Shown: one piece after another, positions 1 through 54,022 of the stretch
How positions within the stretch are numbered: position 1 is the stretch's first letter
How the letters are laid out: each line of letters starts with the position of its first letter
Assembly: GCA_021030905.1 (NCBI GenBank)
Contig: JAGFMI010000005.1
Location: forward strand, 1-64,000
Source of the DNA: Pyrenula massariospora
Lineage: Eukaryota; Ascomycota; Eurotiomycetes; Pyrenulales; Pyrenulaceae
Reading direction: 5' to 3'
DNA length: 64,000 bases
Notes under the pieces: generated by a model
What the model was told of the DNA's origin: nothing
Database searches by the model: none
What the model saw: only the letters and a program-made list of their open reading frames with translations
Made by a program: the position numbers and the translations under genes

Positions 1-74
<74 letters not shown>
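1..74. repeat. Poly-G homopolymer at window start
   Basis: Seventy-four consecutive G bases open the window, followed directly by TTTTAT and ordinary sequence. There is no telomere-type TTAGGG/CCCTAA unit. A homopolymer of this length at the very edge is most simply a sequencing or assembly artefact at a contig end, for example dark-cycle G calls in two-colour chemistry. A real G-tract cannot be excluded from the sequence alone. Confidence 0.9.
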
Positions 75-6751: not shown

Positions 6752-8402
6752 CTATCTCCCCCCAACCTGCCCCTTCGGCACCGGCTTAATCCAGCTCACA
6801 GCCAAATTAATCGCAATAGTAATCACCCCAATAATCCAAATCGTCTTCCCATACTGCTTCCCCAAATACCGGAAAATAATCGCAAAAATAATGCCCCCAA
6901 AATTCCCCGCGGCGCCCGTGCACCCGCTCACGATCCCGTTGGCGTGCGGATGGACGTGCGGCACGAGCGAGTAGTTCGCGCCGTTGGCCGCCTCCAGAAA
7001 GAACGCCATGCCCGCCACGAGCCCGAACATCGTGCTCTCCTTGTGGGAGTTTGTCGCGCCGATGGCGATGTGGAAGGCGCCCGTGACGACGCTGAGGAAG
7101 TGGAGCCAGGCTTTTTTGCTCCAGACGGACCCCGTGCGGCGGTAGAGGAAGTCTGAAATCAAGCCGCCGGCGGGGCGGAAGACGACGTTGAGGAGGCCGA
7201 ACATGGCGGCCCAGTTGCCGGACTCGGTTTGGCCGAGTTTCTGTTTCTTGAATTGGGCTTGGTAGTAGGTGCCGAGGATGCTGTTGATGGAGAGCTCGGC
7301 GCCGAAGGTGCAGAAGTAGCACGCGGCGGTGACGAGGGTCTGGAGGCTGAAGATTACGGTCATCGCGTCGCGGAAGGTGGGTTTTTGGATGACCTCGCCG
7401 CGGGCGGTGTCGAGCATGGCTTGCTCGCTGAGGTGGGCTTCTCCCGCGGCGGAGAGTTTGCGAGGCGCGGCTTCGTATTGGAGTTTCTCTTCGTCGGAGG
7501 CGGCTGGAGAGCGGTTGTGGGGTTGCTGATGTTTGTCATCCATAATGGTTCCGGGCGCGGAGACGATGTCGGCAGCTATGCCGTGGGAGGCAAGGTTTTG
7601 CTGCACGTGCGTATGGCGGTCGCTCCATTTCCCCGTTGGGGTGTCCGGACAGAGTATTAGCATGGCGATGGCGACGGTTGTGATGCAGATGAAGGGGACG
7701 ATGAAAGTGACTCGCCAGGCCACATGAGGGGAGAGGCCCTGGTCGTTGACGAAAGAGTCATAGATTGCTGGCATGAGGAAGTAAGTAATGCCACCGCCAG
7801 CGTTTCCAAGGCCCGCAGTGATCGCATTTGATGTGCCGACGATGTTCTTGTCGAAGAAGCCGGTGGACCAGACCTGACAGGGGACGAATGAACCTCCCAA
7901 TATGCCGACGAAGAAGCGACAGGCCATCAGTTGACCTGCATTGTAGCATGTTCCTGCCAAAGCAGTCGGGATAGCACCAATGAGAAGACATGCTGCAAAC
8001 GTTTTGCGAGGGCCAAAGCGATCACATGATGGACCGGCGACTAAGCGCACCAGCAAACTACGTGGAGGTCAGAGACTTGTAGCATAATTGGTTCAGAAAG
8101 CCCTACGTCGCCACCAGTGCTATAATGTTGGAATTCGATATTTCCTTCTTCGACAGTTTGAGATCTTTCCCAATTGTGTCGGTCAACTTCACGTTGTTAG
8201 AGATTGCAGCATGGTTCCAAAGGCAAAGCTGACATACCAGTGGTGGAAACGCATACCAACTCCAAAATGCGATCATAAAGCCAAACCATGAAAAGAAAAA
8301 GACGCGCCCGTAGACATTGATCGGGTTCAGGAGAGGGATTGTGCGGGCTTTGTGGTTGATCGGGTTGACCTCGGGGGCTTTGAAAATGACGTCGATCCCC
8401 AT
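6752..8402 (-). CDS. High-affinity nitrate transporter, NNP family (NrtA/CrnA-like)
   Basis: Three exons, 8402..8238, 8186..8107 and 8057..6752, give 516 aa, close to the roughly 507 aa of Aspergillus NrtA. It is a plasma-membrane MFS protein that imports nitrate with protons. Family marks are the N-terminal APEVNP...[14 protein letters not shown] block, DRFGP after TM2, the nitrate signature [13 protein letters not shown], a long hydrophilic central loop, and a second glycine-rich signature ([15 protein letters not shown]) near the C-terminus. The ATG at 8402 was preferred to an earlier in-frame one because it aligns with known starts. Intron 1 is 51 bp, divisible by three and free of stops, so unspliced RNA would stay in frame. 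Intron 2 is 49 bp. No nitrate or nitrite reductase gene lies next to it in this window. Confidence 0.93.
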
Positions 8403-48170: not shown

Positions 48171-48830
48171 ATGGTCCAATCTTTCCGCGATTTCATCGGG
48201 GTCCCTGCTTCCACCGCCAGCACCACTGACTCTGTTCTCCTCATCATCGACGCTCAAAAGGAGTATGCTACTGGCCTTCTCAAGACAGAAAATGTCACGT
48301 CAACTAGTAAAGCAATTGCCAGCCTCTTGAACAAGTACCGACAGGCCGGGGGTGCACTGGTCCATATCGTACACGATACTCCCGATGGAGCGCCGGTGTT
48401 CACACCAGGAAAAGACGTGAGCAAGGAGTTTGATGAAGTGCAGGCGAAGGAGGGGGAGAAAGTGGTGCACAAGAACTTTCCCTCAGCTTTTGCCCAGACA
48501 GAGCTGAAATCAGTATTGGATGGATTTGGGAAGAAGAAACTGGTTCTGACAGGGTATATGGTAAGTGATCACCGACATAACCTCCCAGCTGAGGAGGAAA
48601 TTTCTCGGCTCACGTGAATACGCTGACAATATTTCAACCTGCAGGCTCATGTCTGCGTGTCGACGACGGCACGCCAGGCTGCAGAGCTGGGCTATGATGT
48701 TATCCTCGTAGAGGATGCCATTGGGGACCGGAATATTCCAGGGGCAAGCGCAGACGAGGTCAAGAAGATAGTGCTTCTTGAACTCGCAGATGCATTTGGC
48801 ACGGTGGTTAAAAGCGAAAATATAGCGTAA
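48171..48830 (+). CDS. Isochorismatase-like cysteine hydrolase
   Basis: Two exons, 48171..48560 and 48645..48830, joined in phase 0 across an 84-bp intron (GTAAGT, CTGCAG), give 191 aa, the normal single-domain size. The catalytic triad of the isochorismatase-fold amidases is present: D27 in IDAQKEY, K101 in HKNFPSAF and C134 in [13 protein letters not shown]. The second exon is essential, because it carries the nucleophile. Relatives hydrolyse small amides or carbamoyl compounds: nicotinamidase, N-carbamoylsarcosine amidase, ureidoacrylate hydrolase, YcaC-like enzymes. A true isochorismatase role is unlikely to follow from fold alone. The neighbours to the right are an NCS1 transporter and a hydantoinase-type enzyme. 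That makes an N-carbamoyl-amide substrate attractive, but this is inference from position. It is probably cytosolic. Confidence 0.9.
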
Positions 48831-49635
48831 GGCTAACAGATTTCCGACCGCATTCATAAGATAATCTGGTTCCTTGTCATACTTTCTCAATAAAATAATG
48901 CATTAGGGTTATCTTCCAACTTATCGCGCCCGACATCCCGAGACCATACCGACAACGCTATGACCTAATTGTACGCAGAATCAGCAGTCCATAGTTATCT
49001 TTATTATTCCAAGTGGTCTTGGCTAGAAGCCTCAGATCCCATCGTTGTCCTCGAGATCTATTGTGGCACTCAATAAAATGGTGAAGACGTAATTAGTATT
49101 ACTCGAAGCGTCAGTTGTCTTTTGTGTCTTTATGGCTGTTGCTTCACTTTGTTTGGGTTTTCGCTTTCTAATTCAAATTACTTCACGTTGTTCATCACTT
49201 TATTTCAGACCAAAAACGCGAAATCTCTTCAGAGATCTCATCAATGCTGCCAATTGGTACTTAGACTGTCATTGAGCTCGTACATTGTTACTGCAAAGCA
49301 AAATTTGTCCTACAAGAGATCATTGTTCGTCAAACATAGAGCCACATTCATAATCAAGATCTCACGGAGAATAATCCTCACTTGCAATCCAACAAACCTC
49401 CATCATGTTCCGCTTCCTGGCTTCGACGATTTTGACATCTGCTCGCTCCACCGTCATTGTTCACACCTATGATGCCTTGCGGCTTCTTAAAACCGGATAG
49501 CAAATTATTCAAAAAGACCGAAGGATTTTATCTTAAACACTTCTTGAAGACTCTCCCGGTCACTGAAGTCCATACGCACGAAAAATTCTATCCACAAGAT
49601 TGAGATGACTCTTCATTTGATCTAAAGACGACATT
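48831..49635. other. Convergent spacer between hydrolase and NCS1 transporter
   Basis: The two genes end toward each other. The sequence is AT-rich, with only short unsupported frames. No promoter function is required here. Confidence 0.5.
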
Positions 49636-51470
49636 CTATTTTTCAACGTCATTAGAAAGTTCTAACGGCTTCGACATAGCTTTGGGGTCCATTGTGGTTG
49701 ATCTTTGGTCAGTCCTTGCTGCTTCTGCCTCACTATCAGCGTACTCCCTGCCTTCGAGCACCTCTATAGCCTTGTCTTCGTCGTTTGTTCGAATCGGAAA
49801 CGGAAAGACCAGAAATAACAGATAGTATGTAACGGCAGCCATCACCAAACCGTCGAACCAAGACATCGAGTAGAAATTCAAAATACCAATCCCAATGTGT
49901 CCGATATTGGGGTTAATTGCGTGTATCAGCCCCGGTAGAAGAGGAACTACACCTGTCACGAAGGCAGCAAAGGCGCGCGGGTTAACACCCTCGACGAACC
50001 AGTACAGCCCGCGAGGTTTATAGAGATTGTATACATTGAATCCTGGAGTGTTTCGACGAACAAGGAAATAGTCCGATAGCAGGATTCCAACTAAGGGACC
50101 CATAAACACGCTGTAGCCATTCAAGAAAGCAAGGAAACGAGCGGCTTTAGCCTGTATGAGCCATGGGCAGATGGCAAAGCCAAGGATGGCGCACAGAAAT
50201 TGGCCGCGACGGATGTTGATGTAGCGCGGGAAGAGGTTGGTGACGTCGTTGGCGAAGGGAACGGAGTTGCCAGTCACATTTGTGGCGATATTGGCGAAGG
50301 CAAAGAGGAGGCCGACGAAGAACTTGGCTGGTCGATTGGACCAGAGAGATATGACTGAAAGTGGATTCCAAAGGACCTGGCCATAGACAACCTGAGCAGA
50401 GGCAGCCATGACGCATCCAAGCAACTCCGTCAGAGTGATGCAAACGGGCAGGCCGATTGCAGTGGGGAGCCACGCACTTCGCGTTGATTTAGCGTACCGC
50501 GTCACGTCGGCCATGTTGATAGCGAAGCTTGAAGAAGTATTTTTTAGCTAAGAAAAGAAGGGAGGTCGTAATCTGTATAACTTACGTTGCATTTCCGGAG
50601 ATGGCGGCCGTCACAGTGGTAAAGAAAGCGTAAGTCACAGTGAAAGGACCACTTCCAGATGTCAGCAGAGGCCATCTTGCTTCCGAAAGAATACTCACGC
50701 CACTTTATTTGGTATACTGAAAAGGGGTCCAAATCCATTCGAAGCTGTCAAAGCCCATGTGAGCAATGCCACCCACAGGAAAGGCATCAAGATAATCTTG
50801 ACCAACATGACCCATCGAAGCGTGGGAACGCTGAGATAGAGACATGGGAAGGAAATAAGCCAAAACAAAACGAAGCATAGCAGATCAGGTGCGGTAATGG
50901 CAGCGCTAGCTGGTAATGAAGCCTGATGCCATGTGTGGAAGGACGGCCAGATGGCTTCCAGCATGCATCGCAAGGCATTGCCACCAAGATCCGTTTGGAC
51001 ACCATACCAAACCACACAGACAATCGCTCGAACCACACATGCAAAATATGCACCCCACATGCCGAAAGAGGCTCGTGCGATGACGGGGAAATTGATGCCC
51101 CATCGAGCACCAAGATATCCCATCATGGAGCAAGGTACCGCGACCATCAGGTTACCCACCACACATGCTGCAACAGCCAGGCCTGGATTCAGACCAAGGG
51201 CGATTGCGCTTGATGGGCTTTCCATCTGGGCAACATTGAAGCCTTCTGCAATCCAGACTGTTTATGAAAAGTGTCAGCGACCATGGAACGCAAGCGTGAC
51301 GACAGCAGCAACGAACAGCCTCCAACGTGATACCATTCCCATTTCCTCTTGGATCGCGGGACAGGGTCGAGATCTTCATTACTCCATCTTGATGATTCGG
51401 CCTCATTGGTAAATGAACCAGGAGTCGGCCGCAGCTTGAGGCGATCAAGCAGGGCTTTGACAGGCACCAT
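49636..51470 (-). CDS. NCS1-family nucleobase/hydantoin/allantoin-type transporter
   Basis: Four exons, 51470..51317, 51257..50699, 50651..50586 and 50527..49636, give 556 aa; introns are 59, 47 and 58 bp and all phases fit. The first donor is GTTCGT and joins YHVGG to FWIAEGFNVAQM, restoring the TM1 substrate-binding region of NCS1. Further family marks are RWGINFPVIARASFGMWGAY after TM2, VWYGVQTDLGGNALRCML in TM3, the GNATFAINMADVTRYAK segment rebuilt by the last splice, and GFAICPWLI. About twelve hydrophobic segments are present, with a hydrophilic, acidic C-terminal tail of about 60 residues. NCS1 proteins carry purines, pyrimidines, allantoin, uridine, thiamine or hydantoins with protons or sodium. 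Substrate choice cannot be read by eye. The divergent cyclic amidohydrolase suggests a cyclic amide. Confidence 0.92.
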
Positions 51471-52400
51471 CGCATCAAAACGTGCGTCTCAATGGAAGGG
51501 AAACGCAAATGATTCACATTTGAATCGGACAAAAGAAAAGCGCATTAAAGTGTTTGGCAGCAAGATTTATAGATTTTACGTAAAATTCTAATGCATAGTC
51601 TGAAGATAGGATTTGTGTTCCTAAAGAGCGAAATCGATTTCCGAGTGGGCGGCTCTGATCATTAGCCCAGATCTTCGTAGGGCTGCATCGTGCAGCATCG
51701 GCAGAAATAGCCTGAGCTATTGCCCAGTCCTTTGACCAGCAATGTATTGGCTAAGAATCTTATCAAGGATTGCAGGTCCTGAGTGTTCGAGGTGGCCATC
51801 GCCAGGCTCTTGGCTGAATACACACAACGCCCTTCTAGATGTTCGAGAATGTGTCGGATCTTTCAAGTCTCCGGAGATTGTGATGACTGGCAGACTTGAA
51901 TGGTGGATGGCATTTGGAGGATAGATGTTGTTGGCCACTGGAAAGAGTTAGGCTTCTCGGGGGCGGGCCGCGGAAACTGAGCCGATATCAGGTGGTTTGG
52001 CTATCTACCTAAGATCGACTGGCTGAATATTTCTTCAGCGGTTATTTTACTAGTCGGTGGTCTATCCCTAAAAATCGCAGTCCCTGTCGACAGCTCTTTC
52101 TGACCTTCTCAATACGATGCACACGCCGAACGATCACCAGAGAGGGTTCGATCGGGCTCTGACATCACTTGCGACTTGGTGGACCGTCGACAGGCGCGCA
52201 AAACTAGAGATCAATGGCGGATCTTTCCACAACCTCACAATGCGGTGGCGATCTGTTGATTGTGGCGTTGGTCATTTCTTGCGAAGGTGAGCAGATAGGG
52301 CACTATAAACCAGGCAAATATAGAAAACGCGTCCACCATCTTTAAGCAACATCCTCGTACCTTGTCTAGGTTTCTGTCCATCACTTTGATATACCCGCAG
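51471..52400. promoter_or_regulatory. Bidirectional promoter, NCS1 transporter / cyclic amidohydrolase
   Basis: Both genes start outward from this 930-bp interval. HGATAR-type GATA-factor sites occur at 51604-51609 (AGATAG), 51760-51765 (TGATAA on the minus strand) and 52293-52298 (AGATAG). TATAAA at 52304-52309 lies about 95 bp before the amidohydrolase ATG. Three GATA sites are about what chance gives in this length on two strands, so nitrogen control is plausible from gene content but not shown by site density. Confidence 0.45.
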
Positions 52401-54022
52401 ATGATGGATTTCGATTTAATCGTTCGAAACGGCCTTTTAGTGAGCAGATTCAGTTCTAGAACCTGCACTTACTGACCTGCATGCTCGGTAAATCCATTTG
52501 AGGTCGTTGAGAAGCAAGAGATCGGTATAAGCGAAGGAAAGATTCGATGCATCGGCACGGATTTGCCTGTATCGGGAAGAACTGAAATAATTGATGCAGA
52601 AGGCGGCTATGTGACACCTGGCGGTGTCGATTCTCATGTGCATGTAAGAACAGCTCACAGTAGCATTGGCATCTGTGCTAACAATGGCATCTTCCCAGCT
52701 TCAGCAATTCAATACACCAACAGGCGACACGTGGGAAACCGGAACTCGGAGCGCAGTATGTGGTGGAACGACGTCTGTTGTTGCCTTTGCTTTGCAAAGA
52801 AAGGACATGGACAGCGTCCTAGCCATGGTTGACGAATACTCAAAGCTCGCCGAGGGTAATTCATACTGTGACTATGGCATTCATCTGATCTGCACGAATC
52901 CAACCCACAAAATCATTAATGAGGAGCTGGCTAAGCTCAAGGACAAAGGCATTACGAGCCTGAAGCTGTACATGACCTACGATCCTATGAAAATCAGAGA
53001 TCGAGAAATTCTGGACGTCATGACTAGTGCTCGGAGGCTAGGCCTCACTGTTATGATTCACGCTGAGAACCATGACATGATTGGCCTGTTGCTATTCCCT
53101 TTCCTAAAATGGAAGACAGTTCTAACGAATATATTCTAGTGTAATTGAGACGCTCGAGAAACAAGGCCTCACGGATCCTTACTATCACGCTGTATCCCGG
53201 CCCACGATCGCCGAAGCAGAAGCGACATATCGTGCTATCTCCATGGCAGAGCTCATGGACGCTCCAATACTACTGGTCCACGTCTCCTCTGAACTAGCCA
53301 CAAAACACATTCGCGAGGCCCAGACTCGTCTCCTCCCCATTTACGCTGAGACTTGTCCTCAGTATCTTTGGCTACTTTCGGAGCGCTTAAAGAGCAGCAA
53401 CTTCGAAGGCGCGAAATGCGTCTGTTCTCCGCCACTGCGTGACAAACCCGAAGAGCTCGATGCCATGTGGCGAGGTATAGCGAACAAGACCTTTACCACT
53501 TTTAGCTCTGATCATGCTGCAACGAAATTTTACGCCGAAGGTGGCAAGCGTCTGGGATTGATCAATGGACGACCATTCTTTAGGTCTATTCCCAACGGCC
53601 TTCCCGGCGTTGAGACACGCCTTCCCCTCCTCTTCAAGGGCATTTCCGAAAATAAAATTAGCATTCAGGACTTTGTGCGGGTAACAGCCAGCGACCCAGC
53701 CAAGCTGTACGGTCTCGACCAGAAGGGTTCAATATCTCCTGGGAAGGACGCTGATTTGGTGATTTGGTACCCTGACAACAAAATGCCGTCGTTCGAGCTA
53801 AATAATCGGATGCTGCACCACGATATCGATTACACACCATACGAGGGCATGAGATTTGCTAACTGGCCGCGATGGACCATTCTTCGAGGAAAGATCGTGT
53901 GGGACCGGGAGGGCAAAGGGCTCACGGGGTCTAAAGGACTCGGCCAATATGTCAAACGAAGTACCTCATCGCTTCCCGGGCCGAGAAACGTCTTTGTCAA
54001 CGAGTGGCGGCCGCCAATGTAG
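52401..54022 (+). CDS. Cyclic amidohydrolase, hydantoinase/dihydropyrimidinase type
   Basis: Four exons, 52401..52439, 52503..52643, 52699..53087 and 53140..54022, give 483 aa; introns are 63, 55 and 52 bp and every phase fits. The full binuclear metal set is in place: H58 and H60 in DSHVH, the carbamylated lysine K149 in SLKLYMTY, H181 in MIHAEN, H237 in LLVHVSS and D314 in FSSDHAA. The segment RSIPNGLPGVETRLPLLF is the hydantoinase/dihydropyrimidinase form of the loop after the catalytic aspartate and argues against dihydroorotase. The enzyme should hydrolyse a five- or six-membered cyclic ureide to an N-carbamoyl amino acid. Splicing removes a stop in intron 1, and exon 3 to 4 uses a GTTGCT donor. 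It forms a divergent pair with the NCS1 transporter. Start choice between two adjacent ATG codons (52401 and 52404) is open. Confidence 0.92.

What the first reader, a model, noticed from the sequence alone, without database searches (positions are those of the whole stretch)
48171..54022. Possible fungal cyclic-ureide utilisation module: hydrolase, NCS1 transporter, hydantoinase-type enzyme
Three neighbouring genes could form a pathway. The NCS1 transporter (49636-51470, -) would import a cyclic amide and the amidohydrolase (52401-54022, +), with all metal ligands intact, would open the ring to an N-carbamoyl amino acid. The isochorismatase-fold hydrolase (48171-48830, +), with an intact D-K-C triad, might then remove the carbamoyl group, as N-carbamoylsarcosine amidase of the same fold does in creatinine/N-methylhydantoin breakdown. 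Transporter and ring-opener are divergent over 930 bp. Families and triads are seen; the pathway is inferred and the first gene may be unrelated.
Basis: partly seen in the sequence, partly recalled or inferred. Interest (0 to 1): 0.72.

Follow-up and report, generated by a model that had tools for sequence, protein, structure and literature searches.

The report
Fungal transporter and ring-opening enzyme pair
A fungal chromosome carries, head to head, a gene for a transporter of small ring-shaped nitrogen compounds and a gene for an enzyme that opens such rings, probably a small nitrogen-scavenging unit; the third gene proposed as part of it looks like a hydrolase of another known fungal kind.

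Summary
The pathway is partly supported. The amidohydrolase passes TIGR02033, dihydropyrimidinase/D-hydantoinase (434.4 against 393.25 bits); its best solved match is Lachancea kluyveri dihydropyrimidinase, and it groups with that enzyme and an unlinked 53% paralogue. The transporter is an NCS1 protein keeping Mhp1 W117, Q121 and N318. No dihydropyrimidine dehydrogenase was detected, and URC4 is present, so this is probably not step two of reductive uracil breakdown. A transporter plus ring-opener salvage pair is the best reading. The proposed third step is not supported: a beta-alanine-synthase-type carbamoyl hydrolase lies on another contig; the isochorismatase-fold gene is far below the cut-offs of the five NCBIfam models it matches, three other family members score higher on them, and its triad D27-K101-C134 has the spacing of Verticillium VdIsc1. 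Gene order in related fungi could not be tested. A modest, mostly ordinary finding.

The parts
52401..54022 (+). Dihydropyrimidinase/D-hydantoinase-type cyclic amidohydrolase, 4 exons (52401-52439, 52503-52643, 52699-53087, 53140-54022), 483 aa
   Evidence: best PDB match 2fty, L. kluyveri dihydropyrimidinase; TIGR02033 434.4 against 393.25 bits
49636..51470 (-). NCS1 family transporter, 4 exons (51470-51317, 51257-50699, 50651-50586, 50527-49636), 556 aa
   Evidence: TIGR00800 337.4 bits, under its cut-off of 353.1; the only two solved sequences matched are Mhp1; W135, Q139, N347 align with Mhp1 W117, Q121, N318
51471..52400 (.). 930-bp region between the start codons of the divergent transporter and amidohydrolase genes
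   Evidence: 4 HGATAR sites; 311 of 1000 simulated sequences and 71 of 315 windows of the same length had as many or more, so no GATA enrichment
48171..48830 (+). Isochorismatase-fold cysteine hydrolase, 2 exons (48171-48560, 48645-48830), 191 aa; judged probably not part of the pair
   Evidence: best PDB match 3lqy; triad D27-K101-C134, spacing as VdIsc1 D26, K100, C133

Best explanation
Genes B and C form a two-gene salvage unit. The NCS1 transporter imports a small cyclic ureide or imide (dihydrouracil, dihydrothymine or a hydantoin), and the dihydropyrimidinase/hydantoinase opens the ring by two-metal hydrolysis to an N-carbamoyl amino acid. The carbamoyl group is then probably removed by the unlinked beta-alanine-synthase-type M20 enzyme at C8:720751-721959, giving an amino acid, ammonia and CO2. 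Gene A is a separate isochorismatase-family hydrolase of the 3LQY/VdIsc1 type that lies next door. Shown: gene structures, families, intact residues, no detectable dihydropyrimidine dehydrogenase, presence of the C8 gene and of URC4. Inferred: substrate, coupling of B to C, the third step, the reaction mechanism (from the family).
For: C passes the dihydropyrimidinase/D-hydantoinase model TIGR02033, and among the 25 of 62 matching models that were shown it is the only one above its cut-off; the allantoinase and dihydroorotase models shown are not reached. All six metal ligands are present. C groups with L. kluyveri dihydropyrimidinase and paralogue C2 at 100/99 support. B aligns with the hydantoin transporter Mhp1 and keeps W117, Q121 and N318 (that these contact the ligand is recalled). 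Fer4_20 was found once in the genome, on C11, and DHO_dh only on C27, so no gene seen joins both domains as dihydropyrimidine dehydrogenase does (recalled). URC4 is present. The C8 enzyme passes TIGR01879 (293.7 against 204 bits) and its best solved match is L. kluyveri beta-alanine synthase. For A: five NCBIfam models matched at 19 to 53.2 bits against cut-offs of 174 to 378, and three other family members in the genome score higher on each of the five.
Against: No relative of the fungus is held, so the linkage of B and C is a single observation. In bacteria an NCS1-like gene lies near the C homologue in only 1 of 21 loci. The intergenic region has no excess of GATA sites. C misses the narrower dihydropyrimidinase model PRK13404 (541.6 against 647 bits) and B misses TIGR00800 (337.4 against 353.1). 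Fungal NCS1 transporters also carry uracil, cytosine, allantoin, uridine, thiamine and others (passage of PMC10788122), so B's substrate may have nothing to do with C. Mhp1 Q42 aligns with N59 of B and W220 is not kept. The search for dihydropyrimidine dehydrogenase ignored introns, so a gene in small exons could be missed. Thirteen nitrilase-type matches (PF00795) were not sorted, so the third step could also be theirs.
Confidence: 0.5

Rival explanations
1. B and C are neighbours by chance: C clears dihydropyrimidines made inside the cell (for example from damaged DNA or RNA turnover), and B is an ordinary Fur-type uracil or allantoin permease.
For: C groups with a characterised dihydropyrimidinase. 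A dihydroorotate-oxidase-like gene that could be a fungal dihydrouracil oxidase is present. PMC9585004 (passages) discusses detoxification of dihydropyrimidines and says that dihydropyrimidinase, by sequence similarity, probably occurs in many fungi. Only 1 of 21 bacterial loci has an NCS1-like gene near the C homologue.
Against: Two dihydropyrimidinase-type genes and NCS1 matches at eight places, both lower bounds, were found in 37.8 Mb, so a chance divergent pairing seems unlikely. This is a rough argument, not a computed test.
Confidence: 0.35
2. One reading: A removes the carbamoyl group from the product of C, as N-carbamoylsarcosine amidase does.
For: A has an intact D-K-C triad. It matches, more weakly, 3eef, named N-carbamoylsarcosine amidase related protein (45.6 bits), RutB 8bkd (31 bits) and N-carbamoylsarcosine amidohydrolase 1nba (28.9 bits). 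It lies beside B.
Against: Its matches to 3lqy (93.3 bits), 8cib (91.5) and 4h17 (84.9) are far stronger. It scores 53.2 bits against a 370 cut-off for biuret hydrolase and 43 against 378 for RutB. Its motif GYMAHVCV differs from GVTTDVCV, GVGTDVCV and GVATNICV in three other family members of the genome. A beta-alanine-synthase-type enzyme is present elsewhere. None of 21 bacterial loci has an A-like gene near the C homologue. A is tail to tail with B, so it has a promoter of its own.
Confidence: 0.08
3. C has diverged into a hydantoinase for another ring (for example a plant or microbial hydantoin), while paralogue C2 keeps the dihydropyrimidinase role. This does not exclude the best explanation; it would narrow it.
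For: The loop after HVH is five residues shorter in C than in C2 and three shorter than in L. kluyveri, and has FNT as in D-hydantoinase 1NFG.
Against: Which paralogue is closer to the yeast enzyme is not resolved (C with yeast at 83/58). Both score alike on TIGR02033 and PRK13404. The loop begins at an exon junction, so its length rests on the splice model.
Confidence: 0.3

Closest known systems
Lachancea kluyveri dihydropyrimidinase (PYD2; PDB 2FTY, 2FVK, 2FVM)
   Same: Best solved match (397.9 bits), 45.4% identity over aligned columns, same metal ligand positions where printed
   Different: Between the two matched stretches the yeast chain has about 28 residues more than C, and C has a shorter loop after HVH. 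No dihydropyrimidine dehydrogenase was detected in this genome.
Bacterial D-hydantoinase (PDB 1NFG; model TIGR02033)
   Same: Passes the shared dihydropyrimidinase/D-hydantoinase model; 41.8% identity to 1NFG over aligned columns
   Different: Groups with fungal dihydropyrimidinases, apart from 1NFG
Mhp1 hydantoin transporter and fungal Fur-type NCS1 transporters such as A. nidulans FurE
   Same: Same family; W135, Q139, N347 align with Mhp1 W117, Q121, N318
   Different: Low overall similarity to Mhp1 (68 bits). Substrate unknown. No sequence of a characterised Fur protein was available to compare.
VdIsc1 / ICSH1 of Verticillium dahliae and 3LQY of Oleispira antarctica (for gene A)
   Same: 3LQY is the best solved match of A and was one of three structures with which VdIsc1 was compared. 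Triad spacing is that of VdIsc1. The ends are alike: MVQSFRD against MSSFRS, KSENIA against SKDIN.
   Different: No full-sequence comparison was made. Secretion and activity of A are unknown.

Membership tests
Dihydropyrimidinase/D-hydantoinase (TIGR02033) | Score above the curated cut-off | tested here: met
   434.4 against 393.25 bits
Dihydropyrimidinase/D-hydantoinase (TIGR02033) | Two-metal site: HxH, carboxylated Lys, two His, Asp (recalled) | tested here: met
   H58, H60, K149, H181, H237, D314
Dihydropyrimidinase/D-hydantoinase (TIGR02033) | Hydrolysis of dihydropyrimidines or hydantoins | not testable with these tools
   Needs an enzyme assay
Dihydropyrimidinase subfamily PRK13404 | Score above the curated cut-off | tested here: not met
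   541.6 against 647 bits; paralogue C2 545.5
Allantoinase (TIGR03178) | Score above the curated cut-off | tested here: not met
   228.7 against 357.85 bits
Reductive pyrimidine catabolism pathway | Dihydropyrimidine dehydrogenase in the genome | tested here: not met
   Fer4_20 only at C11:2125568, DHO_dh only on C27; six-frame search without regard to introns
NCS1 transporter | PF02133 match and central Trp/Gln/Asn of the Mhp1 substrate site (roles recalled) | tested here: met
   PF02133 above cut-off on both exon blocks; residues from the alignment
NCS1 transporter | TIGR00800 cut-off | tested here: not met
   337.4 against 353.1 bits, narrowly below
RutB / biuret hydrolase type amidases (gene A) | Curated cut-offs of RutB and BiuH | tested here: not met
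   43 against 377.95 and 53.2 against 370 bits
N-carbamoylsarcosine amidase (gene A) | Hydrolysis of N-carbamoyl amino acids | not testable with these tools
   No NCBIfam model of this name appeared among the matches; solved members match at 28 to 45.6 bits against 93.3 for 3lqy
VdIsc1-type isochorismatase-family hydrolase (gene A) | D-K-C triad with VdIsc1 spacing; 3LQY-like sequence | tested here: met
VdIsc1-type isochorismatase-family hydrolase (gene A) | Isochorismate hydrolysis and unconventional secretion | not testable with these tools
   Needs assays

The most novel reading that the evidence does not exclude
The VdIsc1-type isochorismatase-fold hydrolases of filamentous fungi are in origin nitrogen-salvage amidases linked to a ureide transporter and ring-opener, and their role against plant salicylate is secondary.
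Probability: 0.05. Interest if true: 0.6.

Novelty: new member of a known kind. Interest (0 to 1): 0.25.

Why it matters
If the pair works as proposed, it would be a fungal route for using external dihydropyrimidines or hydantoins in a genome with no detectable dihydropyrimidine dehydrogenase, and it would give a role to one of two dihydropyrimidinase copies. It also shows how a plausible three-gene pathway read from families alone can weaken once other members of the same families in the genome are checked.

Tried and rejected
Rejected: A as the carbamoyl-removing enzyme (see rivals). Rejected: C as allantoinase; an allantoinase-like gene may lie at C11:77581-78971, but its identity was not confirmed. 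Rejected: nitrogen-control sites as support; 4 HGATAR sites, no excess, and no UaY-type site in the three intergenic stretches searched. The GATA and UaY consensus sequences are recalled.

Led nowhere: a scan of viral contigs for more relatives of C (59 stretches matched a pattern, none a relative). Frames chosen around the bacterial C homologue gave ABC-transporter genes of nitrate/sulfonate type in L061 (below their cut-offs), a short-chain dehydrogenase in L052 and DUF3616 in L051, and nothing in the one L053 frame scanned; no pathway partner was recognised (4 frames of L061, 4 of L051, 2 of L052, 1 of L053). Paper searches for a fungal cluster of this kind listed nothing that describes one by title or abstract start; the library holds open papers only. 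PMC9505000 (passages) mentions a hydantoinase/oxoprolinase gene only in a list.

Tree rows: 15 of the 21 bacterial loci were given to the first tree. Stops were read as X: one in L053, eight in L067. L067 (frame trouble), L066 and L069 (long branches) were dropped for the second tree, leaving 12 loci. The first tree also grouped the three fungal rows (95/99).
Full report
What is there. The window is the first 64 kb of contig C29 of a 37.8-Mb genome in 33 contigs. It is fungal by its short introns and gene content (inference); the species was not identified. Three genes were modelled by hand with GT-AG introns. A (48171-48830, +) has two exons and 191 aa. B (49636-51470, -) has four exons and 556 aa. 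C (52401-54022, +) has four exons and 483 aa. B and C are divergent over 930 bp; A and B are tail to tail.

Gene C. It passes TIGR02033, dihydropyrimidinase/D-hydantoinase (434.4 against 393.25 bits). Among the 25 of 62 matching models that were shown it is the only one above its cut-off; the narrower dihydropyrimidinase model PRK13404 is missed (541.6 against 647), as are the allantoinase and dihydroorotase models shown. Its best solved match is L. kluyveri dihydropyrimidinase (397.9 bits). The metal ligands H58, H60, K149, H181, H237 and D314 are present and shared with a paralogue. The genome search gave one close paralogue, C2:360448-361899, 53% identical. It is divergent from a beta-lactamase-family gene and has a methylenetetrahydrofolate reductase gene downstream; one search lists no NCS1 match on contig C2. 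In a tree of 17 rows C, C2 and the yeast enzyme form one group (100/99), on the side of the proteobacterial homologues and apart from 1NFG and 3SFW; the order within the fungal group is not resolved (83/58). The yeast row lacks the residues that one search did not print.

Pathway context. Dihydropyrimidine dehydrogenase joins a Fer4_20 and a DHO_dh domain (recalled). Fer4_20 was found once, on C11, in an 896-aa frame that is probably glutamate synthase (identity inferred, not searched). DHO_dh was found only on C27: a quinone-type dihydroorotate dehydrogenase (TIGR01036, 226.3 against 200 bits) and a class-I-like protein (92.4 bits against a 301 cut-off). So no dihydropyrimidine dehydrogenase is detectable, within the limits of a search that ignores introns. 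The class-I-like protein may be a dihydrouracil oxidase of the kind described in PMC9585004 (passages); this was not tested by comparison. URC4 (DUF1688) is present on C22. A beta-alanine-synthase-type hydrolase is on C8: TIGR01879 293.7 against 204 bits, best solved match L. kluyveri beta-alanine synthase at 247.3 bits for its main exon.

Gene B. Two exon blocks match PF02133. The only solved matches are two Mhp1 sequences (68 bits); B's W135, Q139 and N347 align with Mhp1 W117, Q121 and N318, which I recall as ligand contacts, while Q42 aligns with N59 and W220 is not kept. The match to TIGR00800 is just under its cut-off. NCS1 matches lie at eight places in the genome, the window included. 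Four of the other seven were compared with B by tblastn: C11 matches at 38% and C18 at 28%, and C12:644689 and C17 gave no match at E 0.001. [quoted passage not shown]

Gene A. Its best solved matches are 3lqy (93.3 bits), 8cib (91.5) and 4h17 (84.9). Against my reading, 3eef, named N-carbamoylsarcosine amidase related protein, matches at 45.6 bits; RutB gives 31 and N-carbamoylsarcosine amidohydrolase 1nba 28.9. The five NCBIfam models that match are missed widely. Four other places of the genome matched A. For three of them a frame with the cysteine motif was printed: GVTTDVCV, GVGTDVCV and GVATNICV, where A has GYMAHVCV. These three score higher than A on each of the five models (217.2 bits for biuret hydrolase in the C29:1044218 gene), though none reaches a cut-off. 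PMC4348438 (passages and section 15) reports that Verticillium VdIsc1 has its triad at D26, K100 and C133 and was compared with 3LQY and two protozoan structures. A has D27, K101 and C134: the same spacing, one residue later; PsIsc1 (D25, K90, C124) differs. Primers for ICSH1 in PMC5368275 (passages) encode MSSFRS at the start and SKDIN at the end; A starts MVQSFRD and ends KSENIA. That VdIsc1 and ICSH1 are one gene is recalled. A is therefore probably a VdIsc1-type hydrolase. That says nothing about whether this fungus is a pathogen or whether A is secreted.

Linkage tests. Among 21 bacterial loci with a C homologue (5.6 to 15.4 kb, several cut by contig ends), 0 have an A-like gene and 1 (L064) has an NCS1-like gene at E 1e-4 or better. 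The B-C intergenic region has 4 HGATAR sites; 311 of 1000 simulated sequences and 71 of 315 windows of the same length had as many or more. No fungal relative is held, so the most telling test, gene order in ascomycetes, was not possible.

Verdict. The transporter plus ring-opener reading is plausible and the best available. The three-step pathway is not supported at its third gene. The kinds of protein are all known, and interest is low to moderate.

Noticed in passing
window 1-74: The contig starts with a run of G, probably an assembly artefact at the contig end.
   Followed up: no
G000 C27:1939947-1940735 (L072): Class-I dihydroorotate-dehydrogenase-like gene with a 349-aa frame and no curated assignment; candidate fungal dihydrouracil oxidase.
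   Followed up: partly
G000 C29:1044218-1044475 (L018): Isochorismatase-fold gene resembling biuret hydrolase (217.2 bits, under the cut-off of 370) and the solved amidase 6azo, on the same contig about 1 Mb away.
   Followed up: partly
G000 C2:358321-359886 and C2:360448-361899 (L033, L034): The dihydropyrimidinase paralogue is divergent from a beta-lactamase-family gene (PF00144), another possible gene pair.
   Followed up: no
window 6752-8056: Major facilitator transporter frame that looks like a nitrate transporter by eye (recalled resemblance); only PF07690 was confirmed.
   Followed up: no
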